Shown: in pieces, positions 12,177 to 49,593 of the stretch
Layout: each line of letters begins with the position of its first letter
Position numbering within the stretch: the stretch's first letter is position 1
NCBI GenBank assembly: GCA_032622095.1
Contig: CP136068.1
Span: 55,856,928-55,920,927 of the forward strand
Direction of reading: 5' to 3'
Length of the DNA stretch: 64,000 nt
DNA from: Siphonodentalium dalli
Lineage: Eukaryota > Mollusca > Scaphopoda > Gadilida > Siphonodentaliidae
Notes under the pieces: generated by a model
Seen by the model: the letters and a program-made list of their open reading frames with translations, nothing else
Databases searched by the model: none
What the model was told of the DNA's origin: nothing
Translations under genes and position numbers: made by a program

Positions 12177-12302
12177 TCATAATTTGATGCTTATATTGCC
12201 AAGGGATGGTAGGTCTGGAAGTTTCATGTCCTTGATTTTCTGTGGTAAGTTCATGTCCTTAACTGCAGAGACAGCCCGAGCTGGTGCTGCTGTGATGCCA
12301 GC
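12177..12302 (-). CDS. AP3S: AP3S exon 6 (C-terminus and stop)
   Basis: Residues 152-192 then TGA. It reads AGITAAPARAVSAVKDMNLP, then QKIKDMKLPDLPSLGNISIK and L. The APARAVSAVK...NLP motif identifies the AP-3 sigma tail. The acceptor is tatctttacag; entry is in phase 0. Confidence 0.97.
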   Translation of the reverse strand, partial: AGITAAPARAVSAVKDMNLPQKIKDMKLPDLPSLGNISIKL

Positions 12303-15300: not shown

Positions 15301-18300
15301 AATGTTTTTCAAAGTCGAAAGGCCCATAACTCTGGGAAAAATCATTGGATCAAACTCAAATTCGAACTTGACCTGTATTTTGATATGAACGACCCACAAA
15401 AAAACAGAATTTCCAATTATACAATCCAAAATTGAGTTATCATCCGGAAACCAAAGAAAAAACAAGAAACATTGAATTTTCTAAGTCAAAAAGCCCATAA
15501 CTCTGAGAAAAATCATCGGTTCAAACTCAATTTCGAACTTGACCTGTATCAATGACTCACAAAAAACGGAATTTTCAATTGAATTCGAACTCAACCTGTA
15601 TCTTGATATGGCTGCTCCACATAAAAACGGTGTTTGCAATTAAAGGATCCAAACTTGAGATATCATCCGGAAACCGACAAAGTGAGAAATTTTCTAAGTA
15701 AAAAAAAAGTTGAAAAAAGGGAAATAACTCCATAAAAGAACATCGGATCAAACCAGAATTGCAGAGCACCTGTGTGCTTGGTTGAGACACCTACATACCA
15801 AGTTTCAATCAAATTGGATGATCATTACTGGAGTTATAACTCTGGACGGACGGACGCACGCACACAGGCGGACGGTACTACCTACGAAATGGTAGTCGTG
15901 GGGCTATAAGTTAGTGAGTCTGTAAAAAATTACTTGTGTGGCTTTTATTTTTGTTCTTGCAAACAGATAGTTGTGTGCTTTTGTAAACTGTCCGTTCTGT
16001 GTGGCTTTTTAAAATAGTTTTTGTTCTCGCAAATAGATAGTTGAATGAATGAATTACAGTGCATTTTGTGTGGTTTTTAAAATGAATTTGTGAGCCTTTT
16101 ATCCAAATCTGGCTGTGTCTTGACTCTATAGGCTAGTAGACACACATTTTTTTTTTATTGTCCAAGTTATGTGGCTAGCCACACAAGTCAAAAAAGACAC
16201 ACAAGGGGTTCCTCTCCACAAATAAAGCCACACAAAACCCTACTAAAACCGTAAAGTTTGAAGACAAATTCTATAATTGCTGTCATTTCTATAGCAGAAG
16301 TAATCAAGAAATTTAGGTTATCAAGAAATAACTTTAATGGCTAAATGTGTGACAACCAAATAGTTTTATAGTATTCTATGGACCGACAACTCATGGTTAA
16401 TTTAAAATTTGTAAAAATGCCCCCATGTGATGGGAATAAAAAAAGTAACAATTTAATGTTTTTGTCAGCTGGTAATAGCTGTTAAATTGGCATACCTGTT
16501 GGCCAGTTTTGACTGGCAAATTGGTTAACAAGTTTGGACAGTTCATGTTCTATTCAGACCTAGGAGAACCAGCTCTAATAATTTAACACGATATGCCTGT
16601 CGCGACAAATATCGCGGATGTATGAATCATTTCATCATCAACATGTGCAAAATTGGAAACAATGTGGAAAATGGACACTGAATCACACCGGCGATATTGA
16701 CGTAAAATCTTGATTATTCACAGGGCCCTAATATAAAACAATACATTTAAATTTTAGCCTCATGGTTAATACTTGTTTGGTTTTCTGTTGGGGACTATTG
16801 TGTTCTGTTAATACATAAAATCTCTCAGTTCTTTTTACTGATGCTCTTAAATGGTGATTCGGATAAATTCATTACTGGTAACCTGATATGAAATTTAACT
16901 GATTTTTCAAAGAGATACAAGGAGTTTCTCACCTAAGATCAATAAAATAAATCCACAGATCAGGACATTGTAATTGTCCATATTACCTGCTATATACTGT
17001 CTAACATTCAGCCTTATGATAGACAAAGGATCATTAGTGTTTTGCCTCATTACTGTTTTATTGCATTTGGTAGCCCATTGTTTGACAATGCATTGCCCTG
17101 GGTGCTTTGTATTACCAACTAAGCAGTATCACATAATTGATTAGTTAACACAGTCATTGCTCCCGTTATAAAATCAATTTGGTTTTTGAATTAGATATCC
17201 GATTTTGGGATAAAAAAAAACTTTGGGCATTTTAAAAAATGAAAGTGTCTTGACATTGTAGCTCAACTTCGAAAAGGAATAATTTCATGTGTTACAGTCA
17301 ATGAAGCGATTAGGAATGCGGAAAATTTAAATGTCTAAGTAATACTAGATTATCAATATGAGGAGATATATATAAAATAAAATACAAGAAGGCCGCTGGC
17401 AGCTATGATTTCCAATGAATATCAAAAACATTTGATAGCTCCCATCTAGTAGATCAATATCAATATGAAGGTTGGTGATGATCGGATGAGGGAAGTGGAC
17501 CGTAGGGTGTGCCAAAGGATTTAGTCATGCAAAGAGTACAATCCAATATGGCTGCTGGCAGCCATGTTTTATGGCAGATTGACCCCAAATTTACTCATTT
17601 CCATCTACAAGTCAAATTTAACACCCATGACAAATTGAATGATGATCAGATGAAAAGTTCTGCCTGTAGCTTGTAATGGATTGAATTGAAATCCAAGATG
17701 GCCACTGGCGGCCATGTTTGTTTGCCGAATGACCCCAAAATGACTCGTTTCCCATCAACATGTAAATGTCAACAGCCATGACAAATTTCATAATGATCCG
17801 ACCAAAGGTACGACTTGAAGCCCATGCCAAAGGATTTAGTCATGCAAAGAGTAAAATCCAATATGGCTGCCAGCGGCCATGTTTCATGGCCGAATGACCC
17901 CAAAATGACTCTTTCCCATCTACATGTCATTGTTAACATCCATGATAAATTTCATTACGGTATGATCCGACCAAAGGTACAACCTGTAGCCCGTGCCAAA
18001 GGATTTAGTCACGCAAAGAGTAAAATCCAAGATAACTGCCGGCCGAATGACCCCAAAATGACTCGTTCCCATCTACATGTCAATATTAACATCCATGACA
18101 AATTTCATGATGATCAGATGAACAGTATGACCTGTAGCCCATGCTAATGGATTTAATTTTGAAATCCAAGATTGCCACTGGCGGCCATGTTTTTTTGGCA
18201 AATGACCCCCAAAATGACTCGTTCCCATCTACATGTCAATGTCAACAGCCATGACAAATTTCATAATGATCTGACAAAAGGTACGACCTGTAGCCCGTGC

Positions 18301-21300
18301 TGAAGGAAATTGTTGATATACGTTGAGCTAAAAATTGGCCATTGGCCAATGACAGCATGAACCAGGCCTGCTTATCATGCTAAGCTGCATTGACCTTACA
18401 AATAATGGTGACCTCTATTAAATGTCAGTATCTCTCTCACTATTAGTGCTAGTGAAAACGGATTCAATTTTGGAAATTGTGCTATTTCAATTTTGATCAA
18501 TAGAGGGTTTACGTAGAATTACCTCCGACTTTTCTATCTTATTTTGTTCCTCTATCCTTGTCATTATCTCAGTCATATTGGTCTCCAGTACCATCCCACC
18601 CATGACTAGTTCAGAGAGGATATAATGGACCTGAAAACAAAACCAACAAGAGAATCAATATCACTCCACCCATGACTAGTTCAGAGAGGATATAATGGAC
18701 CTGAAAACAATGAAAGTGTCAATGACACTGTAGCTCAATTTGGAAAGGGAATAATTTAATGTATTACAGTCAATGGAGCGATTAGGAATGTGGAAAGTTG
18801 AATGTCTAATACTAGTTTATAGACATGAAGAGAAAAGTAAAATCCAAGATGGCTGCTGGCGGCCATGTTTTCGGTCAAATGACCCCAAAATGAGTCGTTC
18901 CCATCTACATGTCATCGTTAACATCAATGACAAATTTTATGACGATCAGACTAAAGGTACGACCTGTAGCCCATGCTGAAGAATTTAGTCATACAAAGAG
19001 TAAAATCCAAGATGGCTGCTGGCGGCCATGTTTTTTGGCCGAATGACCCCAAAATGACTCGTTCCCATCTACATGTCATTATTAACATTCATGACAAATT
19101 TTATGATGATCAGACTAAAGGTACGACATGTAGCCCGTGCTAAAGAATTTAGTCATACAAAGAGTAAAATCCAAGATGGCTGCTGGCGGCCATGTTTTTT
19201 CGTCAAATGACCCAAAATTACTCGTTCCCATCTACATGTCAATATTAATATGCATGACAAATTTCATGATGATCAGACGAACAGTACGACCTGTGGCCCG
19301 TGTTAATGGATTAAATTTTGAAATCCAAGATGACCCCAAAATGACTTGTTCCCATCTACATTCCAATTTCAACAGCCATGACAAATTTTATGATGATCAG
19401 ACTAAAGTTACGACCTGTAGCCCGTGCTAAAGGATTTAGTCATACAAAGAGTAAAATACAAGATGGCTGCTGGTGGCCATGTTTTTTGGCCGAATGACCC
19501 CAAAATTACTCGTTCCCATCTACATGTCAATATTATCATCCATGACAAATTTCATGATGATCAGACAAACAGTACGACCTGTGGCCCGTGCTAATGGATT
19601 AAATTTTGAAATCCAAGATGGCCGCTGGCAGCCATGTTTTTTGTACGAATGACCCCAAAATGACTCGTTCCCATCTACATGTCATTATTAACATTCTTGA
19701 CAAATTTTATGATGATCAGACTAAAAGTACGACCTGTAGCCCGTGCTAAAGAATTTAGTCATACAAAGAGTAAAATCCAAGATGGCTGCTGGCGGCCATG
19801 TTTTTGGGCCGAATGATCCCAAAATTACTCATTCCCATCTACATGTCAATATTAACATCCATGACAAATTTCATGATGATCAGACAAACAGTACGGCCTG
19901 TAGCCCGTGCTAATGGATTGAATTTTGAAATCCAAGATGGCCACTGGCGGCCATGTTTATTTTCCGAATGACCCCAAAATTAATCATTCTGGTCTAAATG
20001 TTGATGTCAACAGCTATGACAAATTTCATAATGATCCGACCAAAGGTACGACCTGTAGCCTGCATTGTTGAGGATACAATGGACCTGAAAACAAAACCAA
20101 CAAGAGAATCAATACCATTCCACCCATGACTAGATCAGAGAGGATATAATGGACCTGAAAACAAAACCAACAAGAGAATCAATGTAACAGTACCATTCCA
20201 CCCATGACTAGATCAGAGAGGATATAATGTACCTGAAAACAAAACCAACAAGAGAATCAATGTAACAGTACCATTCCACCCATGACTAGTTCAGAGAGGA
20301 TATAATGGACCTGAAAAAAAACCAACAAGAGAATCAATACCATTCCACCCATGACTAGTTCAGAGAGGATATAATGGACCTGAAAACAAAACCAACAAGA
20401 GAATCAATGTAACAGTACCATTCCACCCATGACTAGTTCAGAGAGGATATAATGGACCTGAAAACAAAACCAACAAGAGAATCAATGTAACAGTACCATT
20501 CCACCCATGACTAGTTCAGAGAGGATATAATGGACCTGAAAAAAAACCAACAAGAGAATCAATACCATTCCACCCATGACTAGTTCAGAGAGGATATAAT
20601 GGACCTGAAAACAAAACCAACAAGAGAATCAATGTAACAGTACCATTCCACCCATGACTAGTTCAGAGAGGATATAATGGACCTGAAAACAAAACCAACA
20701 AGAGAATCAATACAATTCCATCCATGACTAGTTCAGAGAGGATATAATGATATAATGTACCTGAAAACAAAACCAACAAGAGAATCAATGTAACAGTACC
20801 ATTCCACCCATGACTAGTTCAGAGAGGATATAATGGACCTGAAAACAAAACCAACAAGAGAATCAATACCATTCCACCCATGACTAGTTCAGAGAGGATA
20901 TAATGGACCTGAAAACAAAACCAACAAGAGAATCAATACAATTCCACCCATGACTAGTTCAGAGAGGATACAATGGACCTGAAAACAAAACCAACAAGAG
21001 AATCAATACCATTCCACCCATGGCTAGTACAGAGAGGATATAATGGACCTGAAAACAAAACCAACAAGAGAATCAATACCATTCCACCCATGACTAGTTC
21101 AGAGAGGATATAATGGACCTGAAAACAAAACCAACAAGAGAATCAATACAATTCCACCCATGACTAGTTCAGAGAGGATACAATGGACCTGAAAACAAAA
21201 CCAACAAGAGAATCAATACCATTCCACCCATGACTAGTTCAGAGAGGATATAATGGACCTGAAAACAAAACCAACAAGAGAATCAATACCATTCCACCCA

Positions 21301-24300
21301 TGACTAGTTCAGAGAGGATATAATGGACCTGAAAACAAAACCAACAAGAGAATCAATACCATTCACCCATGACTAGTTCAGAGAGGATATAATGGACCTG
21401 AAAACAAAACCAACAAGAGAATCAATGTAACAGTACCATCCCACCTATGACTATTTCAGAGAGTATATAATGGACCTGAAAACAAAACCAACAAGAGAAT
21501 CAATACCATTCCACCCATGACTAGTTCAGAGAGGATATAATGGACCTGAAAACAAAACCAACAAGAGAATCAATACCATTCCACCCATGACTAGTTCAGA
21601 GAGGATATAATGGACCTGAAAACAAAACCAACAAGAAAATCAATACCATTCCACCAATTGACTAGTTCAGAGAGGATATAATGGACCTGAAAACAAAACC
21701 AACAAGAGAATCGATACCATTCCACCCATGACTAGTTCAGAGAGGATATAATGGACCTGAAAACAAAACCAACAAGAGAATCAATACCATTCACCCATGA
21801 CTAGTTCAGAGAGGATATAATGGACCTGAAAACAAAACCAACAAGAGAATCAATGTAACAGTACCATCCCACCCATGACTAGTTCAGAGAGGATATAATG
21901 GACCTGAAAACAAAACCAACAAGAGAATCAATACCATTCCACCCATGACTAGTTCAGAGAGGATATAATGGACCTGAAAACAAAACCAACAAGAGAATCA
22001 ATACCATTCCACCCATGACTAGTTCAGAGAGGATATAATGGACCTGAAAACAAAACCAACAAGAAAATCAATACCATTCCACCAATGACTAGTTCAGAGA
22101 GGATATAATGGACCTGAAAACAAAACCAACAAGAGAATCGATACCATTCCACCCATGACTAGTTCAGAGAGGATATAATGGACCTGAAAACAAAACCAAC
22201 AAGAGAATCAATACCATTCCACCCATGACTAGTTCAGAGAGGATATAATGGACATGAAAACAAAACCAACAAGAGAATCAATACCATTCACCCATGACTA
22301 GTTCAGAGAGGATATAATGGACATGAAAACAAAATCAACTAGAGAATCAATACCATTCCACCCATGACTAGTTCAGAGAGGATATAATGGACCTGAAAAC
22401 AAATCCAACAAGAGAATCAATACCATTCCACCAATGACTAGTTCAGAGAGGATATAATGGACCTGAAAACAGAACCAACAAGAGAATCAATGTAACGGTA
22501 CCATTCCACCCATGACTAGTTCAGAGAGGATATAATGGACCTTGTTGTTACAGCTTAACTGTTACAGTTACTAGCTCACAGCATTAAAAAAAAAATTCCT
22601 TGTAGTGGCAAGTCGCCTGTAAAACCACATATTCAGTTAAATTCACCTGTAGTGAAAACCATTTTATCGCTTACACACTGTCGAAGCTCTATTGCTATCA
22701 TACACATGTACATCTCTTATTGACATTCAACTTAGTGAAGACTAAACAAAAGTAACCCATGTTTGCATGACGTAATAGTATGCAATGCCAAAATAGTGAC
22801 AAGTCAACCCCATTTGCACAAATCTGACTCCCAGTCACTCAAGGACACTCCATACAAAATGTAAGTCAAATAGGCTTTGGGTTGTGAGAATGGGTTGAGA
22901 GAATAATGGGTTGAGAAAAAATGTTCCCTGACTCCTCCTCTATTTTAACAGGTGCCGCCATTTGAATAAATCTGAATCCTTAAGACACCTAGGGCTAAAC
23001 AAACCAAATATGTCCCCTTTTAGTCTTGCGGTTTTGCCAATGTTTGAAGAATTGTTGTGGACAGCCGGATGACTATCCTTGAGATATGGGAGGTAATTCT
23101 GAAAAACAGTCTGCTATATGGTGGAAGTTTGTTTGAAGAAAATTTCCTCAAACATTATTAATATCAATTCTAATGAAAACACATGATTTAATGTTTAATA
23201 TTTGGAATAAAATCAGGCTAAAGAGGGTAATTTTGAGGCAAAAATTGTGTGTTTACTATCTAGTTTGGATGTTGTGGTCATATAATCTATATTAGTGGCA
23301 GCAACAGGTTATTTTTTTTTAGTCTGGACAACTTTTTTCTTAAAGAGTAAGGTGACATATCTTTCCAATGATCCTCTTCAAAGTACAGCATCTTGTGTTC
23401 TAGAATAGTCCAACTTACTAGTAAGTCATATTTCAGGGTGCTGTTTGAGTGTATCTTATTTGATAAGATACTTATGATATGATATGAACTTGTTGATATT
23501 TAGAAAAGCACACTCTACCTTAATTTTCTCTCCCTCTTTCCACACACACACACACAGCTACGAGTGTTCATAATCAAAATATGTTGTGGACTATGTATCT
23601 TCCGTGAGAATAAGAACATATTCAGCAGCACCTACCCGAAAGAGGACAATCCCTGTTTAAAGGGTGTTCACTGTGAATGTTGCAGTATCCTTCGCGTGAA
23701 ATCATTTCACGTATAAACAGGATAATAACAAGTAACATACAAAATAATCATTTTCAGAATGCATTTAGTACTACATATATAGTGGGGAATACCATGCTGC
23801 TGCATAACGTGGCCGTAATCCAATTCGTTGTGATAGAATCATGGGAATCTTTTTGTTCTCATGATATATGTCTTTACTGCATTAAATATTTGTTTGTTTT
23901 CGCAAAGGCTTATCTCCCTTGATCCCCGCAATAGAGTATTATTGGATAGGGCAATGTTGGGTAGGGCATCATATAGTTCTCTTCTGGGCTCTTGGTAAAA
24001 TGTACCTTCAAAGAGATAGTGGTAAGTGAAAGTTCAGAATTTCAGATGACCATGATTCAATTGTAAGTGGAGGAATCAGTCCTGACGAAATAATGGATAG
24101 TTTGTTCACACGATTGTGATCATTCCAGCTACGATTATTACATGTACACACAACTGCGATAACGTCCCAAGTGGAGGTAGCCACGATTTCGCATCTGAAA
24201 TCAAACAGTGCTTGATATTATTTTTTGACTTGCGATATTGACGTGAGCATGCGCAGTCTAACTGCCAGCTACTTCTTATGACGGAAATCTATCCACTTTC

Positions 24301-30300: not shown

Positions 30301-33300
30301 GATAGAAGCCCTCAACTTCAGCACAGGCTTCTCATAAGATGTTGGACAATCAAATGTTTCAGTCAGACTAATTAATCTTTAATTAACTAATCTTTAGGAC
30401 CATTTTGAAAAATTAAGGGATAAGAAGCAGGAAATACTCCTGCCTACTATGGGAGAGAGTGTAGTTTGTGCTAGGCATGAGTAAAATTATATCAAGTCAC
30501 CTTATCCACGTGGAATATCAGGTCCAGTTCACAGACATTCTCAAAACATTTGTCAAGTGTCTCTACAAACACCTGAAAGACAAAAATAAAGAATTCATTT
30601 TTACCATAGAATCTCAACCCTTGTTCAGCTTATTGGTGCCTATAGTGCTCAGGCCTTCCAAGTCTGCAAAAAGTGTGTCTGTCATTTGCAGAATGAGGGC
30701 CCCTGAGGGTGAATTTAGTGATGCTACCCCGCACAGCAGGCTAGCATCACTAAATTCACCCTCTGCGAACCTAATTCTGCTTAGGCCTCAACTATGCTAT
30801 GGGAGACCTAGGATCAGATTGAAGTTCCCCAGTTGAAGTTGATGATGTTCACCCATTAGTCACCTCGAATATACATTTTATCTTCTGCAGATAAGGGAAT
30901 ATAGAAACTTCCGAGAAGTGAACAAGAGCATCACTAGGGCGTGGCAAAATATGCCTGTTGTAATTTCAACAATGGGCCATAACTCAGGTGAAAATGGCGG
31001 GTGGAACCCAAATTTGAGTATGACCCATATTTTGTTCTAGTAAACTTACATACCAAATTTAATTACATTCAATTCAGACTTACTAAAGTTATGATCCGGA
31101 AACAAAAATCAAGTACAAATTCCAACAAAAAGGGCCGTAACTCTAGTGAAAATAGGCAGGCAGTACCCAAATTCTCACTTGACCTGTATTTTGTGTTAGT
31201 AAACCCAAATACCAAATTTCATTCCATTCAATTTAGACTTACTAAAGTTATCATCCGGAAATAAAAATTAAGTGCAAATTCCAACAAAAAGGGCAGAAAA
31301 TAGGCAGGCAGTACCCAACTTCGAACTTGACCTGCATTTTGGACTAGTAAACTCAAATACCAAATTTCATTCCATTCAATTCAGACTTACTAAAGTTATC
31401 ATCCGGAAACGAATAAAGCGAATGGATGGACAGATGGATAGGTGACGCATGCACCAATATCATAATACTTCGTTTTTTTTCAAAACGGGCATACAAAATG
31501 TTAATAAAAACAATATCAATTCCCAGAAGATGAGGTGACAGCAGAATGAGGTCCCAAGAGAGTGAATTCACACTCTTGAGACCTCATTCTGTAAATGACA
31601 AGACACACTATTTGCAGACTTGAGGCCTTCTATCTTATTTCTCGGTTGTAATTCTGGTGTAAAGATGGGCTGAAAGATATATATGTTAACTCTAGGTTCC
31701 AAACTTTTCCAATGTTATTGTTAAGGATATATTAACGATGTGAAGCTGTTGTTTCTGCTATTGAACAAGTGAATGTCAAACACTGCATTGATCATCAAAT
31801 GACCTGCCAAAGAACTTGCATGTTTAAACCAAGAACACAGTCGGGAGCTAATGGATCTCGCTCAACAGGATCAGCACACTGAGAATACCCATCAGCTTGA
31901 ATTGCATCCTCCATAGTAATGATGAGTAACTAATGACCTATGATCAGAGTAATACTGCTGGAAGTCACATTAAACTAATTCACAACAGAATGTGCTTGTA
32001 ACTCCATCCATTATTAAATCTGGATCTCATGCAAACAGTGAGAGATTAGGGCTTGTATCACAAAGTGATATCCCCCCATTAAAAACATTTCCTAACTACA
32101 TATTCATCATAATGTTTCGTCATAACAACGTTTTTTCCAGGTGGTTTGATGTGCGACAGGGAGCCAGGCAGGGAGGAATCCTCTCGCCGTTGTACTATAT
32201 GATCTACATTGACGAGTTGATACATATCCTTGCAAACTCGCCGTTTGGTTTAAACATGCTCGGTGTAAATTGTACGTCTCCGACACATGCAGACGATATG
32301 GTTCTGCTGTCTCTCAGCAAATCTGGTTTATCAGCACTATGTGAAATTTGCTACGATTACAGTAACAAATGGCGGTATCGATATAACCCAAATAAATGCG
32401 CTGTAGTGGTATTTAATGAAACTAAATCCGAATTTTCGCGTCAGGATCGACTTTGGAACCTTGGTACCTCAGATGTCAAAGAAACCACCAACATAACTCA
32501 TTTGGGCATTTATCTTGATAAGTATGACTTTAATAGAATATTCACAGAGCATATATGCGATAAGACTCGTAGCACGTTTATGATGCTCAACAACGCCGGC
32601 CTTTACCCGGGTGGTATGACCCCAACAAGTTGCTCGTTGATATATTCGTCGGTGGTCATACCTAAAGGGCTGTACGGGTCTGAACTTCTCTGGAATTTGA
32701 ACCAAAAACACGTTGATCGCCTGGAACGCACACAGAGATTCTGTTTAAAGTATTACCAGGGCCTTCACCGTCATACAAAAACGGTTATCTGCCGTCCATC
32801 CAACGTTATGCATGTCCCGGCTATGGGAAAATTGTCGCATATACCCAGCCCATAAAAAATCATATCTACTTATTGCATGCCTTATTTGTATCCTGGAAAC
32901 AAATGAGGAAACCTGCGTATTATGTGACAACAAACATAAAGATCTTGTAAAACATGCCTTAATCGAATGTTCTTCCATTTGCCACTATCGAAATACTTTT
33001 GAATTCGAGCTATTAAACTTGTTTCATGTAGACATGTATATGCAGTATGACAAACTGGATGTAGAATCCAAAACGCGCATTCTACTAACAGGTCTACATG
33101 AAAACATATACTGTGCTCCCGAAGAAGAAAAGCAACTAATAGACTTTTTCGTGAACAAAGCTGCATTCCTCTGGAGAGTATATGTTGATCGACTGACGCC
33201 AAGTCCTGACTAGGTCTCCCAAATCTTCATATAAACTCGATCATAACATGCAGTTATAAGCGTGTTCGTAATTGTTCATATCACATGTATCTGTGTATTG

Positions 33301-39300: not shown

Positions 39301-42300
39301 ATGTTTTTTGGCCGAACGACCCCAACATGACTCGTTCCCATCTACATTTCATTGTTAACATCCATGACAAATTTCATGAAGTTGCGACCAAAGCTACGAC
39401 CTGTAGCCCGCGCCAAAGGATTTAGTCATGCAAAGAGTCAAATCCAAGATGGCTGCTGGCGGCCATGTTTTTTGGCCGAACGACCCCAAAATCACTCGTT
39501 CCCATCTACATGTCAATATTAACATCCATGACAAATTTCATGATGATCAGAACAAAGGTACGACCTGTAGCCCGCGCCAAAGGAAATTGTTGACGGACAC
39601 ACGCACACGCGGACGACAGATGCCAAACCATGGCAATAGCTCAAACTTACAAAGTAAGTTGAGCTAAAAAGGCAATAACTCCACCAAAATAAGTCCATCC
39701 CTACAGGGCTACAGGCCGGAGTGTTCATTATGAAATTTGTCATGGGCGTTGACATTGACATGTAGATGGGAACGAGTCATTTTGGGGTCATTCGGCAAAA
39801 AAACATGGCTGCCAGCGACCATCTTGGATTTCAAAATTCAATCCATTAGACGGGCTACAGGTTTGTTCATCTGATCATCATTAAATGGCAATAGCTCCGC
39901 CAAAATGAGTCCCAAATGAACTCAAAATATCAAAGGTTCCCATGCTGTTTGATATATGTGCCAAGAGTAAAATAAATTGACCAAAAAAAGACAGAATACA
40001 GACTCGGACAAAGTTCCCGACGGACGGCCAGACGGACGAGGGTCATTACTATAGGGACAACTAGCTCGAAAGGCCAAACCATATTCATATAGATATATAC
40101 ACACAGTACTATAAAAAGAAAAAGAAGGTAAGTCACAAATAGCTGGTCCACTTCTGGAATGGGGGCTTTGCTTCTTGCTGTGGCGGCATGTACCCCTGTC
40201 CATACACAGTAAGCAAAAAACCTACTGTGTATGGGCATTTAGGAATATATTCACACTCTTCAGGGGCATTACAACAATACCAATGTGGGTTGCAGCAGAG
40301 GGCTGCCAGCCCTTTCAAATGCTCCCGGGCCTCACTCCCAAACTTCTAATCATATGTTAGTTGGACTTCATTCTTCATGGCACCCGGCTCTTATTCATCC
40401 GTCATGACATCCAAATTTGGTTATATTTCATTGGCACCCAATCTACATAATTATTACTATTGTATGTGCTATCATCTCAATTTGAAATAAACAATAAATA
40501 CTATTATTACTACATTACTGGAGTTCATTTATTATCATCATTTTATCTACCAGAGCTAATTTCACCTCCTGTACAAAGTCATAATTTTTTAACTGAATGA
40601 CTATATTATCTAATGAGCAGTGAGGTCTTCCTCAAGGATATAGACCCATATATTGGCACTAATGTGTCTTTCGTTTGATGAATTCATACTAATTTGCGTT
40701 AACTGTTACCTGAATAAGATCGAGTATTCCCAACTCGCTTTCTGACGAATCAACACAGAATACAAAATAGAGTGTGGCGTAATGTCTGTAGATGAGTTTG
40801 TAGTCTGATCCTCCTATTAACCTGAATAAAACATGAATGTGTCAAAGATACTGATGCTCAACTTGACATTAACAAGATAATAGGCTAGACCATTTATATG
40901 GCTAGATATGCATGATAATGTCACCTGATACCTTGAATTAGTGGGACCATATTTGATATATGAGAATAAAGATGTTGCTGGTCTTCAGCAGGATGCAAAA
41001 TAATACAATTTTGACTTTTTTAGTATTCAGCCCCAAATTTGGTACTTTTTTATGAAATTACCTCATTTCTTATCCAAGTTGATAACATAATCTATTCATG
41101 CAAAATGGCAACACTGGTATTTGTCCAATTGCCTGATGGTCATTTTATCATTAAAATATCCGCTTGTCTATGCTCCAGTCTGTTGTGATCCACAAACGTT
41201 AAATTAAGGTAGGAATTATCCACTATTAGAGCTCGTCATATGTGTAAAAGTAAAAATTTCCAGCGAAAATTCAGAAGAAAACTCATACTAAACTAAATTG
41301 GGTTCTGTTACAATGACAGGTACAAACGGATTTGAGCCAGGCATGATATTAGGGAGGTTCCAAGGCTAGCTATTTTAAGGCTTGGTAATTCATATATTGT
41401 TTTATTAGCAACAACATACACGATATAATGCTATGAGCAAAAAATATCCATAGTTTGCCATAGTGAAGCTCAAATTCAATCAAACTAATAAGCATGTCCA
41501 GTTTCTTAATTCTAAGGTTTGACAACTAAAAATCAACACTGTCGTCCCTCCCTCTAGGAAGTTACGCATGTTATCATCTCTTGGATACTTACGTCCCTCC
41601 CTCAAGGAAATTACAAACATTATCATCTCTTTTGGATACTAAGTGGAATGTTTCTCTAATTATCTGGTGCTGTACATCTTCAGGCTGAAAACACAGGAGA
41701 AAGTAAAGGAGCTACTGCACAAAACTCCAACCAGATTAGCAGGTTTTCGGTAACTTATGAGATTAAAATATTAGTTATGAACTTCTAATTTTAATAATAA
41801 TAAAACCTTATTTCAAGAAGAGAGATAATTGATACGGTAGTTTTTCCAAATTTGAATGGAAACCCTCAATTTCTGAAATACCAGCAAAAAAGTGACAATG
41901 AGATAACTTCAGATAAGGCCCAGCAAAATAGCCTTTACAGATATTCTCGAAACCAATTTTGTTCTCATCTCACACATTTTTATGGAAGCCTAGTAGTGCC
42001 AGTTAGATTTTTGCTTAAAGTGAAAAAATTTAGATATAAAGTCGAATATAAGAGATAATAAGTCGAAAATTTTAGATTATAAGTCGAAAATTGAAGATAT
42101 AAAGTTGATTATTCAAGATATAAGTTGAATATTCAAGCTAAAAATTTGATAATTCAAGATAATAAGTCGAAAATTCTAAGATAATAATTTGAGATAAAAA
42201 GTTCAATATTTGAGATAAAAAGTTGAATATTTGAGATAAAAAATTGAAAATTCAAGATAAAAAGTTGAAAATTCAAGATAATAAGTTGAAAACTCAAGAT

Positions 42301-48300: not shown

Positions 48301-49593
48301 GCTGTTCCTCGCATTAAAGTCGTCACTTTCGCGCATTTTAGGGGGCCTCTGCGAATTCGGGGATTTCCACAAAGGGCTTACACCATCTAAGTTCCATTGC
48401 GAGCTTTAAACACTATGAGCGAATAGATTTTCAATAAAAGTAACAATTATAACCAACGCACATGTATTTATCAACTAAATACTAATACAAGCGTGAAACC
48501 ATCCACTCACCTACGTGTCATTTATCCTTAAAATCCGACAAATAACAGAGTGTAAACACTGACATGTCGTGTGTTCGTCGACCATTGCATATGTGACCCA
48601 TCATTTCATGAATCCCCCTGTGAGTTCCCTGTGCACATGTCAAGGTAATCACTGAGTGTACAATTCATGTAGCCTGATATAATTCAAGTTGTGGGTAACT
48701 ACAATCTGCGCATGCATGTAGTTTTTACAACTAACCAATTCCAATTTGTTACACATGCGTACCGTTAACTTCCTGATAGTCATGCGGGTTGCAGAATCAT
48801 GTTCGGATACATGAGCCATGCACGGTAATTTGCACGGGACGCACGTAGTCATGTGATATGTTAGCTCCTCCTACTTCGGCCATTTAACAATGTTTTGTCA
48901 ACATGTTTTCCGACTGGATTTTTGAATTAAATAATTACGGAATTATACACACTTTCTGGTAGGTGTCAGAGTTAATATAGATATAATTCAAGTTGAGGGT
49001 AACTACAATCTGCGCATGCATGTAGTTTTTTACAACTAACCAATTCCAATTTGTTACACATGCGTACCGTACTGTTAACTTCCTGATACAGTCATGCAGG
49101 TTGCAGAATCTTGTTCGGTGACATGTGCCGTGCACGGTAATTTGCACGGGACGCACATAGTCATGTGATATGTTAACTCCTCCTACTTCAGCCATTTAAC
49201 AATGTTTTGTCAACATGTTTTCCGACTGGATTTTTTTATTAAATAATTATGGAATTATACACACTTTCTGGTACTAGTACAGTAGTAGTGGTAGGTGTCA
49301 GAGTTAATATAGATTGCAATATTGTTAACATTAATCACTGTGTTAGTTGATTCTTAAAATTAAGTGTATTTAAATTTTTTTAGCTAATCGCCCATGCTGA
49401 AGCGCGACGGCTATGCGACCGGTCGGAGTCTGACTATCCCCTAAACAGGGCCTTCTGCAATTTGCACCCACTATCGAAATTAGGCGAAGTGATTTTTTTA
49501 TATAAATATTACGGCAGTTCATACATAGTATTGGTAGAACCTCGACATCCTTGCTTTCCCATGATTGTTGAAAACCAAGATAGCTTTGATCAT
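12177..49593 (-). CDS. AP3S: AP-3 adaptor complex sigma subunit, 6-exon gene
   Basis: Six exons on the minus strand (listed separately) give a 192-residue protein, against about 193 in vertebrates. AP-3 sigma is the small subunit of the heterotetrameric AP-3 coat, which sorts cargo from endosomes to lysosomes and lysosome-related organelles. The longin-like clathrin-adaptor small-chain fold fills residues 1-150. Family signatures are MIKAILVFNNHGKARMSRFY, NVCNFLEGG, LIYRHYATLYFVFCVDSSES, TLDKCFENVCELDLIFHVDK and the AP-3-specific tail APARAVSAVKDMNLP. All junctions are GT-AG with coherent phases (0, 2, 0, 0, 0). The sequence mixes features of vertebrate AP3S1 and AP3S2, as expected for the single invertebrate orthologue. 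The introns are repeat-filled; intron 4 contains an array of exon 5 starts. Confidence 0.97.
12382..12480 (+). repeat. older hAT-like end fragment
   Basis: 'taggacccaaggattcggc' followed by CGAATC-rich sequence is a diverged match to the left end of the 12509-13687 element. It appears to be a truncated older relative lying next to the younger insertion, inside AP3S intron 5. Confidence 0.5.
12509..13687. mobile_element. non-autonomous hAT-like transposon with 8-bp duplication
   Basis: Terminal inverted repeats TAGGGCCCGACGAA (12509-12522) and its reverse complement (13674-13687) are flanked by a perfect 8-bp duplication gtcctcaa (12501-12508 and 13688-13695). An 8-bp duplication and a TAGGG-type terminus fit hAT. 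Subterminal regions on both sides are packed with 'cgaatcgaat' motifs, the usual place for hAT transposase binding sites. The 1.18-kb element has no transposase and depends on a partner elsewhere. It sits in AP3S intron 5. Confidence 0.85.
13700..14075. other. intron 5 stretch without recognised features
   Basis: Nothing beyond ordinary AT-rich intron sequence was seen here. Confidence 0.4.
14076..14165 (+). repeat. ATTGG minisatellite, ~42-bp units
   Basis: Two ~42-bp units alternate 'tacttattggc' with 'gcgttttc' and 'gactttttgt'. Four 'cttattggc' motifs are spaced ~20 bp apart, each an inverted CCAAT box. A CRE-like 'atgacgtaa' lies just before, at about 14047-14055. It could be a chance minisatellite or a promoter-like module. 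Confidence 0.5.
14210..15010 (+). repeat. dispersed repeat R3, diverged copies
   Basis: R3 modules are present: 'aaaatccaagatggctgctg', 'gcggccatgttttt', 'gatagctcccatc', and 'ttggtgatgat...ggatgag'. It is an older and more diverged form than the 17-20 kb arrays. Confidence 0.8.
15011..15289. other. junction between R3 and R1 repeats
   Basis: Short AT-rich spacer with the R2-like pieces 'ggaggagttgattacacc' and 'acatgttgcacatctcc', seen also at 10620 and 35520. These are probably part of a composite repeat. Confidence 0.4.
15290..15905 (+). repeat. dispersed repeat R1, tandem copies
   Basis: About three copies of 'aaaggcccataactctggga', 'tcgaacttgacctgtatttt' and 'gttatcatccggaaacc'. The array closes with 'cggacggacgcacgcacac', a typical R1 tail. 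Confidence 0.88.
15940..16230 (+). repeat. diverged duplicated TGTGTGGC segment
   Basis: 'tgtgtggcttttatttttgt' with 'cgcaaatagatagttg'-type modules appears twice (near 15944 and 16000), followed by short TGTGTGG/CCACACA pieces near 16165-16230. It is an old local duplication. Confidence 0.5.
16231..17234. other. intron 5 stretch without recognised features
   Basis: No exon, RNA or clear repeat is seen. The boundary to R3 is at about 17235. Confidence 0.45.
17235..18300 (+). repeat. dispersed repeat R3 tandem array, intron 5
   Basis: It begins with the R3 head ('gaaagtgtcttgacattgtagc', palindromic in better copies) and continues as ~150-170-bp units. These start near 17390, 17541, 17692, 17858, 18028 and 18166 with 'ccaagatggc...ggccatgtt' and 'cattcccatctacatgtca'. 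Confidence 0.9.
18523..18630 (-). CDS. AP3S: AP3S exon 5
   Basis: Residues 116-151: VHYILSELVMGGMVLETNMT then EIMTRIEEQNKIEKSE. Both ends are in phase 0. The acceptor is ttggttttgttttcag and the donor is gtaattc. The first ~40 nt and the acceptor are the source of the intron 4 tandem array. Confidence 0.97.
18631..18710 (-). repeat. exon 5 start duplicate nearest the real exon
   Basis: Immediately upstream of exon 5 (minus strand), the acceptor tract and first ~40 nt of the exon are repeated once more. The sequence is then interrupted by R3 sequence starting at ~18710 and resumes as the large array at 20071. Confidence 0.9.
18711..20070 (+). repeat. dispersed repeat R3 inserted in the exon-start array
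   Basis: R3 head ('tgaaagtgtcaatgacactg') followed by eight ~130-166-bp units starting with 'ccaagatgg' near 18843, 19009, 19171, 19323, 19452, 19614, 19780 and 19931. Exon-5-start sequence lies on both sides, so R3 splits the array. Confidence 0.9.
20071..22540 (-). repeat. 70/78-bp tandem array of AP3S exon 5 splice-acceptor cassettes
   Basis: About 35 head-to-tail units of 70 bp, some 78 bp by an extra 8 bases (tgtaacag on the plus strand). On the minus strand each unit reads: branch-like ttgat, pyrimidine tract 'tctcttgttggttttg', tttcag, then about 40 nt identical or nearly so to the start of exon 5 (GTC CAT TAT ATC CTC TCT ..., VHYILSELVMGGM). The last unit (ending 22540) has a different upstream flank. 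Units follow a higher-order pattern: 428 bp (five of 70 plus one of 78) near 21361-22216 and 225 bp near 20311-20536. The array lies in AP3S intron 4. Confidence 0.97.
22541..25575. other. intron 4 stretch without recognised exons
   Basis: A (CA)n tract lies at ~23541-23557. Otherwise no coding exon, RNA gene or strong repeat was found. Open frames such as 23677-23922 and 24854-25060 have no protein-like features. Confidence 0.45.
25576..25770. promoter_or_regulatory. promoter-like motif cluster in AP3S intron 4
   Basis: Within 160 bp are an ETS/GABP-like gcggaagt (25576-25583), an E-box cacgtgac (25599-25606), an inverted CCAAT box attgg (25609-25613), a GC box gggcgg (25703-25708) and a CCAAT box (25726-25730). 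The segment is CpG-richer than its AT-rich surroundings. No exon is attached on either strand, so it may be an intronic promoter, an enhancer, or a relic inside a repeat. Confidence 0.4.
25771..26440. other. intron 4 stretch without recognised features
   Basis: AT-rich, no supported gene or repeat. Confidence 0.4.
26441..26690 (+). repeat. ~122-bp direct tandem duplication
   Basis: 'ataaagagcgtccatgc' (near 26443) and 'ataaagagcgcccatgc' (near 26563) start two diverged units. Each also contains 'caataaagagcrttct' and a gaggt module. Confidence 0.65.
26691..28478. other. intron 4 stretch, with one hairpin
   Basis: No exon recognised. It includes a perfect 13-bp inverted repeat with an 8-nt loop at 27522-27555 (gtttgtgttcggc and its reverse complement) and TGTGTTCGG-like repeats near 27685-27720. 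Confidence 0.45.
28479..28619. mobile_element. 141-bp MITE-like foldback
   Basis: Inverted arms of 39 bp (28479-28517 and 28581-28619) differ at three positions; both contain 'ctccttaaccacagcaga'. The loop is about 63 bp. No target-site duplication is clear. Confidence 0.65.
28620..29089. other. intron 4 stretch without recognised features
   Basis: Nothing supported. Confidence 0.4.
29090..30060 (+). repeat. dispersed repeat R1 tandem array
   Basis: About five units with 'gttatcatccggaaa' modules (near 29251, 29411, 29529, 29690 and a diverged one near 29975), plus 'cttgacctgtattttg' and 'accaaatttggttc'. Two tails of the gacggac/gacagac type occur at ~29430 and ~30000. Confidence 0.9.
30061..30500. 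other. intron 4 end near exon 4
   Basis: Ordinary AT-rich sequence between R1 and exon 4. The donor of exon 4 (gtgactt, minus strand) abuts 30501. Confidence 0.45.
30501..30572 (-). CDS. AP3S: AP3S exon 4
   Basis: Residues 92-115: VFVETLDKCFENVCELDLIF then HVDK, nearly invariant across animal AP-3 sigma proteins. Phase 0 at both ends. The acceptor is tttgtctttcag and the donor is gtgact. Confidence 0.98.
30705..30763. repeat. perfect 22-bp inverted repeat hairpin
   Basis: gagggtgaatttagtgatgc... (30705-30726) and its exact reverse complement (30742-30763) flank a 15-nt loop. Probably a small MITE end pair. It lies in intron 3, about 130 bp upstream of exon 4 on the minus strand. Confidence 0.75.
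30970..31490 (+). repeat. dispersed repeat R1, three copies
   Basis: Units near 30970, 31110 and 31265 carry 'gggccataactcaggtgaaa', 'ccaaatttcattccattcaa' and 'gttatcatccggaaa'. The tail is 'gaatggatggacagatgg'. The long open frame through it is repeat-derived. Confidence 0.9.
31543..31590. repeat. 48-bp near-perfect palindrome
   Basis: 'agaatgaggtcccaagag' and its inverted partner 'ctcttgagacctcattct' meet with almost no loop; 22 of 24 positions pair. Another small foldback in intron 3. Confidence 0.75.
31591..32084. other. sequence upstream of the LINE fragment
   Basis: No recognised feature. The LINE homology begins only at about 32085-32105. Confidence 0.45.
32085..33800 (+). mobile_element. 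5'-truncated LINE with reverse transcriptase remains
   Basis: The first coding part (to 32855) has reverse transcriptase blocks: VFSRWFDVRQGARQGGILSP, the catalytic THADDMVLLS (intact Asp-Asp), and a thumb-like region with NPNKCAVVVFNE. A frameshift near 32810 moves the rest to another frame, 32812-33213. That part ends in a CX2C...HX4C zinc-knuckle (CVLCDNKHKDLVKHALIEC) typical of non-LTR element C-termini. The endonuclease and palm N-terminus are missing. An AT-rich 3' UTR with (TA)n at ~33402-33424 and 'aataaagatata' near 33786 follows. Clade not certain. Inside AP3S intron 3, antisense to the gene. Confidence 0.88.
33801..34361. other. stretch between the LINE and the 34.4-kb open frame
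   Basis: No exon is assigned. A Lys/Arg-rich basic frame near 34325-34360 (NKNKGRKNK) may be an upstream part of the same transcript as 34362-34907, in another frame. Confidence 0.35.
34362..34907 (+). CDS. hypothetical 181-aa coiled-coil protein
   Basis: An ATG-started frame with an in-frame stop just upstream. The N-terminus is polar (MTQGRQQEGQMETGRAERCQ), the middle is acidic/Pro-rich, then a basic stretch (KPRRHTQREREPLD) leads into a predicted coiled coil (LIQEMKNEIRRTKLQVLQTR). The last ~15 residues come from a T-rich tract (FFLFFFVYFYK) and may not be real. An aataaa lies at about 34902-34908. It has no recognised domain. It could be a retroelement ORF1-type protein, a lineage-specific gene nested in AP3S intron 3, or a chance frame. 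Confidence 0.35.
   Translation: MTQGRQQEGQMETGRAERCQAPHLTSEQNHQLTIEDINNSGVRDADVTQDISAAIFELELDAPPKPTQPHAEEDSLTVPKMPMYKPRRHTQREREPLDIDKLIQEMKNEIRRTKLQVLQTRIQAHLKQIQETQLMLSIECVTAATTSPPLPWIPLRLQHYVGEEEKEKKCFFLFFFVYFYK
34930..35419. other. unassigned stretch
   Basis: An open frame at 35072-35374 (plus) is compositionally protein-like but has no recognisable motif. It is not called as a gene. Confidence 0.35.
35420..35800 (+). repeat. dispersed repeat R2 copy
   Basis: It contains 'ggaattgattacaccaatat', 'tgttgcacatcttcaatg', 'gttaacatctgtgccaag' and 'gacggaatgcaggctcg', matching the 10.6-11.3 kb array in order. Confidence 0.85.
35801..36000 (+). repeat. dispersed repeat R3 head
   Basis: 'tgaatgaaagtgtccatgac', 'gcgattaggaatgcggaaag', then 'aaaatccaagatggttgctg'. 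It is the same head-body order as at 17235, 18711 and 37866. Confidence 0.85.
36001..36569. other. intron 3 stretch without recognised features
   Basis: Nothing supported beyond short homopolymer tracts. Confidence 0.4.
36570..37600 (+). repeat. dispersed repeat R3 tandem array
   Basis: Seven or so units with 'ggccatgttttttggccgaa' and 'gaccccaaaatgactcgttc'. It ends in 'gacggacacacagacacacg'. Two variants alternate: 'acatgtcaatgtcaacat' and 'agaggtcaccccgatgatcc'. Confidence 0.9.
37601..37865 (+). repeat. dispersed repeat R2 copies
   Basis: 'ggagaatgacgaaatacagg', 'gatgcatcccagg', 'atgctggttgacatctgtgc' and a second 'tgacggaatacaggctcc'. Confidence 0.88.
37866..38850 (+). repeat. dispersed repeat R3 array with head
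   Basis: The head ('gaatgaaagtgtcaatgac') is followed by units starting with 'ccaagatgg' near 37986, 38153, 38320, 38440, 38573 and 38730. Confidence 0.9.
38880..39040 (+). repeat. dispersed repeat R2 copy
   Basis: 'aactcaaaatcgcaggtgcg', 'ttgatatctgtgccaag', 'gatgcgtcccaggatgtacg'. Confidence 0.85.
39041..39660 (+). repeat. dispersed repeat R3 array
   Basis: Head ('agtgtcaatgacactg') plus units near 39117, 39283 and 39445. The tail is 'gacggacacacgcacacgcg'. Confidence 0.9.
39700..39870 (-). repeat. inverted R3 unit
   Basis: The reverse complement of one R3 unit ('gaacgagtcattttggggtc', 'catcttggatttcaaaattc'). It is the only clear minus-orientation copy in the 35-40 kb block. Confidence 0.85.
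39885..40045 (+). repeat. dispersed repeat R2 copy with tail
   Basis: 'atggcaatagctccgccaaa', 'agacagaatacagactcgg', and the tail 'cggacggccagacggacg'. Confidence 0.85.
40133..40345 (-). CDS. Cys-rich open frame, possible alternative 3' exon
   Basis: Minus-strand frame of ~70 residues: KFGSEAREHLKGLAALCCNP, HWYCCNAPEECEYIPKC, then PYTVGFLLTVYGQG and a polar end with stop. Paired cysteines (CC, CC, C, C) and aromatic residues look protein-like. It begins after 'actaacatatgattag', which holds a good branch-like ctaac and an AG, and it would join AP3S exon 3 in phase 0. It has no pyrimidine tract, no visible polyadenylation signal and no recognised family. A transposon fragment is equally possible. 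Inside it is a perfect 12-bp inverted repeat (ccatacacagta / tactgtgtatgg) near 40200-40236. Confidence 0.3.
   Translation of the reverse strand, partial: KFGSEAREHLKGLAALCCNPHWYCCNAPEECEYIPKCPYTVGFLLTVYGQGYMPPQQEAKPPFQKWTSYL
40346..40709. other. intron 3, first part after exon 3
   Basis: No further repeats recognised. The donor of exon 3 (gtaacag, minus) abuts 40710. Confidence 0.45.
40710..40821 (-). CDS. AP3S: AP3S exon 3
   Basis: One base completing residue 54, then residues 55-91: LIGGSDYKLIYRHYATLYFV then FCVDSSESELGILDLIQ, the core of the adaptor small-chain fold and almost invariant. The acceptor is ttttattcag and the donor is gtaaca. Confidence 0.98.
41544..41592 (-). repeat. intronic copy of the exon 2 end
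   Basis: The first 49 bases of intron 2 (minus strand) repeat the last ~51 bases of exon 2 with few differences: exon 'agtatccaaaagagatgata' against intron 'agtatccaagagatgataac', both ending in gagggagggac. The donor gtaagtatcc comes from the duplicated exonic ttagtatcc. Confidence 0.93.
41593..41684 (-). CDS. AP3S: AP3S exon 2
   Basis: Residues 24-53 and two bases of codon 54: PEDVQHQIIRETFHLVSKRD then DNVCNFLEGG. The acceptor is tgtgttttcag and the donor is gtaagt. Junction codon AC|G gives Thr, a position that varies in the family (Leu, Ser or Thr). Confidence 0.98.
41685..42029. other. intron 1, last part
   Basis: No feature other than the acceptor of exon 2. Confidence 0.4.
42030..42345 (+). 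repeat. ~20-bp AT-rich minisatellite
   Basis: About 14 diverged units of 'aagttgaaaattcaagataa' with variants in gtcg/gttg and attc/tttg. The reading frames on both strands reflect the unit. Confidence 0.85.
42346..43299. other. intron 1 stretch with a GC-richer island
   Basis: 42400-42780 is GC-richer than its surroundings ('cctgccggccaattggttg', 'gtgcctcgggggctccg') and may be a fragment of an unrecognised repeat. The rest is featureless. Confidence 0.4.
43300..43815 (+). repeat. dispersed 'tttccaac' repeat, copy 1
   Basis: It has 'gcaattttccaactgg', 'aaggttggcaaatt', 'aatgaccatttcagtcaaa' and 'ccctgtcgccacgtcc'. Related copies are at 54860-54990, 56213-56580 and 61195-61320. Confidence 0.65.
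44081..44609. mobile_element. ~530-bp imperfect palindrome, MITE-like
   Basis: Outer arms 'catggtggggaatcatgtgg' (left) and 'ccacatgattcgggatcatt' with 'ccccaccgtg' (right) pair. Inner arms 'cattccgaccaaagttg' and 'caactttggtcagaatg', and 'gaaacaagttgatacc' and 'ggtaccgtatcagcttgttt', also pair. The centre is near 44330. No coding capacity. Confidence 0.6.
44610..45139. other. intron 1 stretch without recognised features
   Basis: Nothing supported. Confidence 0.4.
45140..45235. repeat. hairpin with GATTCGG repeats
   Basis: 'gagaagattcggtcca' and its inverted partner 'tggaccgaatcttctc' flank a 45-bp core of 'agattcgtcagggacg'-type repeats. Related fragments occur at 56030-56100. Confidence 0.65.
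45450..45560 (+). repeat. GTGGCCACGAGAA minisatellite
   Basis: Five units of about 20-22 bp ('gtggccacgagaatatgaag', 'gtggccacgagaagaaagtc'). tggcca is palindromic. Confidence 0.75.
45561..46711. other. intron 1 stretch with one MITE end
   Basis: 46135-46187 matches the right end of the TTAA-flanked MITE at 51008-51445 ('cagattgagtacctttaa'). The rest has no recognised feature. Confidence 0.45.
46712..48034. mobile_element. CAGGG-ended inverted-repeat element, probably hAT-like
   Basis: The ends are CAGGGTTTCCGCCA (46712) and TGGCGGAAACCCTG (48021-48034). The flanks are (TA)n, so an 8-bp duplication cannot be confirmed (atatatat and atatatag, allowing one base of slip). Inside are a G-homopolymer (~47396-47418) and a direct repeat of 'gtacgatagcacgggatctc' (near 47529 and 47658). 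No transposase is present. Confidence 0.6.
48035..48675. other. intron 1 stretch without recognised features
   Basis: Nothing supported. Confidence 0.4.
48676..49314 (+). repeat. 304-bp tandem duplication near exon 1
   Basis: 'gatataattcaagttg' starts at 48676 and at 48980. The units share 'actacaatctgcgcatgcat', 'ttgcacgggacgcac' and 'gtcaacatgttttccgactg' at about 93% identity by eye. The second unit carries a small extra 'actagtacagtagtagt' piece. It lies in intron 1, 210 bp past exon 1. Confidence 0.9.
49525..49593 (-). CDS. AP3S: AP3S exon 1 with start codon
   Basis: Residues 1-23: MIKAILVFNNHGKARMSRFY then QYY. The ATG at 49593 is the family's normal start; the context acaaacATGA is acceptable. 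The donor gtatga follows in phase 0. Confidence 0.98.

What the first reader, a model, noticed from the sequence alone, without database searches (positions are those of the whole stretch)
18523..22540. Tandem amplification of a splice acceptor plus exon start inside a conserved gene
Each 70/78-bp unit of the array carries a yUnAy-like ttgat, a pyrimidine tract, tttcag and the first ~40 nt of AP3S exon 5. About 36 decoy 3' splice sites therefore precede the true one. The decoys share the real site's sequence, so selection must rest on the nearest-to-donor rule, the missing exon body (no downstream donor or enhancers), or RNA structure. A weak GT after 39 nt (ATG|GTATTG) would define an in-frame 13-residue mini-exon VHYILSELVMGGM, so inclusion could in principle lengthen the protein in 13-residue steps. 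Reading through a 70-bp unit instead hits a stop in the next unit.
Basis: partly seen in the sequence, partly recalled or inferred. Interest (0 to 1): 0.88.

Follow-up and report, generated by a model that had tools for sequence, protein, structure and literature searches.

The report
Repeated splice-acceptor decoys inside AP3S gene
In what is probably a bivalve, the start of one exon of a housekeeping gene and the intron end before it have been copied dozens of times in a row inside the intron; similar structures described in lancelets do not disturb splicing, so this is an unusually large example of a known oddity and a natural test of how cells find the right splice site.

Summary
On the minus strand, intron 4 of an intact six-exon AP-3 sigma gene (192 aa) holds 36 extra copies of the end of intron 4 plus the first ~40 nt of exon 5, mostly in 70/78-bp units. 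Of these, 33 keep a TTTTCAG|GT acceptor and 26 match the true site over its last 24 nt. Corrections: two units lost the AG, one has no pyrimidine tract, and a ~1.36-kb transposon (18712-~20069, resembling bivalve HINE/Pearl elements) splits the array, leaving one decoy (18700) within ordinary exon length of exon 5's donor.

The units look like neutral minisatellite: exonic and intronic parts differ equally (1.54% v 1.38%), changes are not biased to synonymous, and 5 of 35 units have indels in the exonic part. This argues against maintained 13-residue mini-exons.

The closest known kind is the amphioxus 'mirage', a tandem duplication of an exon-intron boundary reported not to disturb splicing (PMC3087553, PMC3902484). 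The same gene has a second boundary duplication, at exon 2's 3' end. Most likely a passive mirage, large, in a probable bivalve. No RNA or population data could be examined.

The parts
18523..18630 (-). AP3S exon 5 (108 nt), true acceptor TTTTCAG|GTCC, donor GAG|GTAATT
   Evidence: frame joins DK|VHY..SE|AG and matches AP-3 sigma homologues
18631..18700 (-). decoy unit nearest exon 5; its exonic copy starts at 18700, giving a 178-nt alternative exon with a frameshift and stop
   Evidence: acceptor tract partly made of transposon sequence (14 of 20 pyrimidines v 16 of 20 at the true site)
18712..20069 (.). HINE/Pearl-like non-autonomous mobile element inserted in the array (124-bp flank plus 164-bp tandem monomers); ends approximate
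   Evidence: dispersed copies elsewhere in the window and shared ends; build compared with passages of PMC7492417
20070..22540 (-). main array: 35 of the 36 extra exon-5 starts (the last, at 20084, truncated)
22253..22324 (-). two neighbouring copies (starts 22322 and 22253) whose acceptor AG is AT
30501..30572 (-). AP3S exon 4, donor AAG|GTGACT
12177..12302 (-). AP3S exon 6 with stop codon
40710..40821 (-). AP3S exon 3
41593..41684 (-). AP3S exon 2, donor GAC|GTAAGT
41543..41589 (-). second boundary duplication: an extra copy, in intron 2, of the 3' end of exon 2 (original at 41640-41592); 41 of 49 aligned columns identical; its GT is lost (GAC|GACAGT)
   Evidence: TRF row 41543-41640; local score 56 v maximum 22 in 1000 letter shuffles; columns counted
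49525..49593 (-). AP3S exon 1 with start codon

Best explanation
A 'mirage'-type minisatellite. A segment of about 78 bp spanning the intron 4/exon 5 boundary (branch point, pyrimidine tract, AG and about 45 nt of exon) was duplicated in tandem and grew by multi-unit exchange; an 8-bp deletion gave the 70-bp form; a HINE/Pearl-like transposon later split the array [all inferred from sequence]. The array lies in intron 4 and is removed with it [inferred]. The true acceptor wins by exon definition: it is followed at 108 nt by a good donor and the rest of the exon, while 35 of 36 decoys lie 1562 nt or more from that donor and the one at 178 nt has a somewhat poorer tract [distances and sequences shown; choice of site inferred]. 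The units show no detectable coding or splice-site constraint [shown]. Occasional use of a decoy without a second splice gives an early stop [frames shown], and such RNA is probably degraded [inferred].
For: Intact six-exon gene. 37 exon starts, 34 of them with TTTTCAG|GT, the true one included. Equal divergence of exonic and intronic parts, 21 of 1362 v 14 of 1013 cells (Fisher p 0.86); 10 non-synonymous and 4 synonymous distinct changes, v 90 and 27 possible ones (p 0.74). Identical units recur at lags 3 and 6 (2 and 11 of 500 order shuffles reach the value; 12 lags tried). Transposon inside the array. Second boundary duplication in the same gene. Amphioxus Adh3 and globin mirages have the same layout and are reported not to disturb splicing (PMC3087553, passages; PMC3902484, passage).
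Against: No transcript was seen, so correct splicing is inferred from an intact frame and from amphioxus. The decoy at 18700 is within exon range and has a TTGAC branch-like motif and a fair tract, so exon definition alone does not exclude it; before the transposon more decoys were in range. Single units hold fair donors: TAG|GTGGGA 2.70 and two CAG|GTACAT 1.48, v 2.94-4.27 for exons 2-5 and -1.12 for exon 1. 31 of 36 decoys with no sign of decay at the AG could also be read as a young array rather than a tolerated one.
Confidence: 0.75

Rival explanations
1. Leaky decoys as a brake: a sizeable fraction of transcripts joins exon 4 to decoy acceptors, read-through products carry early stops, and array length tunes AP3S output through mRNA decay.
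For: 33 of 36 decoys have intact acceptors; 36 of 36 give a stop on read-through; decoy 18700 would form a 178-nt exon ending at the real donor.
Against: No sign of selection on the units, two acceptors dead and one missing; amphioxus mirages are reported harmless to splicing.
Confidence: 0.1
2. Mini-exons: units are sometimes included as 39-nt in-frame exons, giving sigma-3 proteins longer by 13-residue steps, a ladder like that of human polyubiquitin UBC.
For: 27 of 36 units have acceptor, 39 nt and GT. UBC shows that a tandem array of AGGT sites can splice stochastically (PMC10809524, abstract and one section). Four of 131 listed homologues (three rodents, one fluke) have 10-21 aa insertions at the same exon 4/5 junction, so some insertion may be tolerated, though these may be annotation errors.
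Against: Usual donors ATG|GTATTG and ATG|GTACTG score -1.89 and -2.25, 81st and 78th percentile of all GT in the window (recalled vertebrate matrix); no coding constraint and 5 of 35 units with indels in the exonic part; no duplicated peptide in 131 listed homologues.
Confidence: 0.05
3. Recursive or dual-specific splicing: each CAG|GT acts first as acceptor and then as donor, so the intron is removed in steps along the array.
For: AG|GT in every unit with an intact acceptor.
Against: CAG|GTCCAT is a poor donor (-2.55); only two units have GTACAT.
Confidence: 0.03
4. Assembly artefact: the array is absent, or its length is wrong.
For: Long near-identical arrays are easily collapsed or inflated; PMC3087553 says that the draft assembly of the BflGb6 mirage looked aberrant. 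No reads could be examined.
Against: Units carry private and shared variants in multi-unit blocks, and a transposon lies inside. The copy number may still be off.
Confidence: 0.05

Closest known systems
Amphioxus 'mirages' (Adh3, globins BflGb6 and BflGb9, troponin C, PGBD5; PMC3087553 and PMC3902484, passages)
   Same: Minisatellite-like tandem duplication of an exon-intron boundary inside a conserved gene; BflGb6 has exactly the end of an intron plus the start of the next exon; many units carry AG/GT signals; both 5' and 3' boundaries can be hit, as in this gene.
   Different: Probably a bivalve, not a lancelet; 36 extra copies v 3 and 6 units in the two BflGb6 haplotypes; 70/78-bp units v 150-160 bp in BflGb6 (10-72 bp in Adh3); split by a transposon. 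Splicing and instability not tested here.
[quoted passage not shown] only the title seen in a reference list)
   Same: A tandem repeat carrying many splice sites at an exon edge.
   Different: Donors, not acceptors; from the title and recall, some are used.
Human polyubiquitin UBC array of dual-specific splice sites (PMC10809524; abstract and one section read)
   Same: Tandem array with an AGGT splice-type motif per unit.
   Different: UBC units are whole coding monomers of 228 nt and are shown to be spliced in a ladder; here units are partial exons inside an intron with poor donor context.
Internal tandem repeats altering human genes in segmental duplications (PMC2812944, passages)
   Same: Minisatellite expansion that can lie at an exon-intron boundary.
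   Different: There it lengthens exons or is thought to create introns; here the frame and the exon count are intact.
Intron gain by tandem duplication of AG/GY sites (PMC2891723, passages)
   Same: Tandem duplication carrying a splice motif.
   Different: No new intron has arisen here; the copies lie in an existing intron.

Membership tests
mirage (boundary minisatellite) | Tandem, minisatellite-like repeat whose unit spans an exon-intron boundary of the gene | tested here: met
   Units = end of intron 4 plus first 39-45 nt of exon 5; 36 copies
mirage (boundary minisatellite) | Many but not all units carry AG/GT splice signals | tested here: met
   33 of 36
mirage (boundary minisatellite) | Units similar and homogenised, cluster edges less so | tested here: met
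   Mean identity 97% over 595 pairs; blocks at lags 3 and 6; outermost unit lacks the tract
mirage (boundary minisatellite) | Regular splicing undisturbed | not testable with these tools
   No RNA held
mirage (boundary minisatellite) | Length differs between alleles or within the body | not testable with these tools
   One assembly only
mirage (boundary minisatellite) | Host is a cephalochordate (where the name was used so far in what I found) | tested here: inconclusive
   Best named AP3S hits are bivalves (Saccostrea 91%, Mytilus 91%) and no lancelet name among the 120 rows listed in each of two searches, many rows being unnamed; reverse transcriptase hits named Mytilus or Thiodiazotropha. 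Points to a bivalve; species unknown
HINE/Pearl element (18712-~20069) | Central ~160-bp tandem repeats between conserved flanks, dispersed | tested here: met
   164-bp monomers; left flank shared from its first base by five other places
HINE/Pearl element (18712-~20069) | Right flank with stem-loop and microsatellite; insertion without target-site duplication | tested here: inconclusive
   Four other ends carry AATTGTTGA, three of them followed by CA-rich sequence; this copy has ATTGTTGA but no microsatellite; stem-loop and insertion rule not tested
UBC-like array of dual-specific sites | Each AG|GT usable as acceptor and donor | tested here: inconclusive
   Acceptors good, donor context poor by a recalled matrix (-2.55); use not observed

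The most novel reading that the evidence does not exclude
The array is a working splicing device: decoys or 39-nt mini-exons are used at a meaningful rate, so that array length sets AP3S output or creates sigma-3 isoforms in 13-residue steps, and boundary minisatellites are a wider animal source of regulation or of new introns rather than a lancelet peculiarity.
Probability: 0.1. Interest if true: 0.78.

Novelty: new member of a known kind. Interest (0 to 1): 0.4.

Why it matters
It is a natural experiment on 3' splice-site choice: 26 of 36 decoys are identical to the true site over the last 24 intron nt, so correct splicing would have to come from the surroundings. It also suggests that boundary minisatellites of the amphioxus kind occur in a second, distant animal group, with two cases in one gene, which bears on models that derive new introns from such arrays.

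Tried and rejected
RNA structure as selector: 706 nt of the array (20655-21360, part of it) fold no better than shuffles (z +1.45; 18 of 20 shuffles fold at least as well). Recursive splicing: donor context too weak by a recalled matrix. Retrocopy as source: rejected, the units carry intron sequence. 18712-18835 as the original 3' end of intron 4: first considered, rejected because it is a dispersed repeat. Outer edge at 22541 (CTGTAACAACAAG|GTCC): looks like a unit that lost its tract, not resolved; 22542-22900 has no other match in the window at E 1e-3. Boundary copies of the other exons: a BLAST of each exon +-60 nt found none for exons 1, 4 and 6 apart from a weak 38-nt match of exon 4 (E 0.009) and only transposon-end matches for exon 3; that run did not list the exon-2 copy either, since it drops close diagonals, so TRF is the better test and shows no row at exons 1, 3, 4 or 6. 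Species by transposon protein: best hits 41-49% identical, a hint at phylum level only. Copies elsewhere: 0 exact matches of a 32-nt pattern in viral contigs and genome contigs, which hold no animal genomes and may leave out the window's own records. Literature: ten searches gave the word mirage only for lancelets; boundary tandem repeats in human genes are described under other names (PMC2812944). Most subscription papers are not in the library.
Full report
What is there. The minus strand carries a complete AP-3 sigma gene: six coding exons and an open 192-aa frame, Pfam Clat_adaptor_s (E 1.6e-48), closest solved sequences AP-3 sigma-1 (E 8.2e-99). Exon 5 is 18630-18523 and begins in phase 0 after the DK of exon 4. 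Upstream of it in intron 4 lies a tandem array (TRF 20070-22542, period 70, 34.2 copies, score 3972). A motif scan counts 37 exon-5 starts, the true one included. A full unit holds the first 39-45 nt of exon 5, a branch-like TTGAT, a pyrimidine tract and TTTTCAG.

How good the decoys are. 33 of 36 copies keep TTTTCAG|GT; two have CAT and the outermost has AACAACAAG. 26 of 36 are identical to the true site over the last 24 intron nt, and 20 of 36 carry the commonest form of the 39 exonic nt, which differs from exon 5 by one synonymous base. Local sequence cannot tell true from false. 27 of 36 could in principle be 39-nt exons with a GT behind, 19 of them with the exact peptide VHYILSELVMGGM. 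Without a second splice, 36 of 36 read into a stop after 10-54 codons.

The array is broken by a transposon. The 124 bp next to the 18700 unit look like unique intron but match five further places in the window from their first base and a sixth in part. With the 164-bp monomers they form an element of about 1.36 kb (18712-~20069). Five of the six starts compared have AAT before GAAAGTGTC; four of the other ends inspected carry AATTGTTGA and three of these run on into CA-rich sequence, whereas the copy in the array has ATTGTTGA and no microsatellite. The build resembles bivalve HINE/Pearl elements (PMC7492417, passages: ~160-bp central repeats, flanks with subterminal repeats and microsatellite). 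The array therefore probably once ran up to exon 5. Today one decoy start lies 178 nt from the exon-5 donor and the other 35 at 1562 nt or more.

No constraint on the units. In 35 aligned units (the copy truncated by the transposon and the true exon were left out) the 39 exonic columns show 21 substitutions in 1362 cells and the 29 intronic columns 14 in 1013 (1.54% v 1.38%; Fisher p 0.86). Ten distinct exonic changes are non-synonymous and four synonymous, while all possible single changes split 86 non-synonymous, 4 stop and 27 synonymous (p 0.74). Power is low with 14 changes. Five of 35 units have indels in the exonic part. Mean pairwise identity is 97% over 595 pairs. Among 34 units, identical ones recur at lags 3 and 6 (2 and 11 of 500 order shuffles reach the value; 12 lags tried), as in arrays that grow by multi-unit exchange. 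A folded 706-nt part shows no excess structure (z +1.45).

Donors (recalled vertebrate matrix). True donors of exons 1-5: -1.12, 3.25, 2.94, 4.27, 3.52. Mini-exon donors: -1.89 (70-type) and -2.25 (78-type). AG|GTCCAT read as donor: -2.55. Against my reading, a few single units hold better GTs: TAG|GTGGGA 2.70 (21444), two CAG|GTACAT 1.48 and three TGG|GTGAAT 0.87; and exon 1's real donor is itself weak.

A second boundary duplication. The last ~47 nt of exon 2 and the first base of its intron are repeated once in intron 2 (41640-41592 and 41589-41543; TRF row; local score 56 v a maximum of 22 in 1000 letter shuffles; 41 of 49 columns identical). At 84% it is probably older than the 97% array (inference). 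TRF shows no row at exons 1, 3, 4 or 6.

Relation to known things. [quoted passage not shown] BflGb6 has the end of an intron plus the start of the next exon, units of 150-160 bp, 6 and 3 units in two haplotypes; BflGb9 has a duplicated 3' boundary of an exon; Adh3 units are 10-72 bp. The authors say that Adh3 data and their RT-PCR suggest no interference with regular splicing, that clusters vary in length, and that mirages could seed new introns. PMC3902484 (passage) adds PGBD5 and troponin C. The present array meets the structural definition; splicing and instability were not testable. Boundary repeats are also mentioned for human genes (PMC2812944, passages), and splice-site arrays for human UBC (PMC10809524) and IFI6 (title only), so the general idea is not confined to lancelets.

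Which animal. The best named AP3S hits are Saccostrea (91%), Mytilus (91%), Crassostrea (89%) and Lingula (88%), and no lancelet is named in the 120 rows listed by either search, though many rows are unnamed (the query was tentative). Reverse transcriptase hits with an organism name are Mytilus edulis and five Candidatus Thiodiazotropha MAG proteins; these bacteria are symbionts of lucinid clams (recalled) and such MAGs may hold host DNA (inference). With the HINE/Pearl-like element this points to a bivalve; the species is not known.

Protein-level check for mini-exon use. A search with a made-up query holding one extra 13-residue unit returned no protein with the duplicated peptide. Over the 131 proteins listed by the two searches, four have insertions of 10-21 aa at the same exon 4/5 junction, none of them the duplicated peptide. 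Only 120 rows per search are shown out of about 4800 hits, and the database is clustered at 90%, so this is weak evidence.

Verdict. Passive removal with the intron is most likely. How the decoy at 18700 is avoided is the sharpest open question.

Noticed in passing
41543-41640: The 3' end of exon 2 is duplicated once into intron 2, a second exon-boundary duplication in the same gene.
   Followed up: partly
40828-40865 (minus strand, just before exon 3): The end of intron 2, up to the exon 3 acceptor, resembles the terminus of the same transposon (82-85% over 30-39 nt, best E 8e-5), as if a transposon end supplied part of a real acceptor.
   Followed up: no
14215-14915, 17241-18307, 35809-38841, 39041-39584: Further copies or pieces of the HINE/Pearl-like element in and around this gene.
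   Followed up: partly
31974-32855 and 58134-58550: Reverse transcriptase fragments (Pfam RVT_1).
   Followed up: no
63260-64000: 36-bp tandem array running to the window's end.
   Followed up: no
intron 5, between 18523 and 12302: 21 of 131 listed homologues, four named molluscs among them, have 4-50 extra aa exactly at the exon 5/6 junction; whether this gene has such an optional exon was not checked.
   Followed up: no
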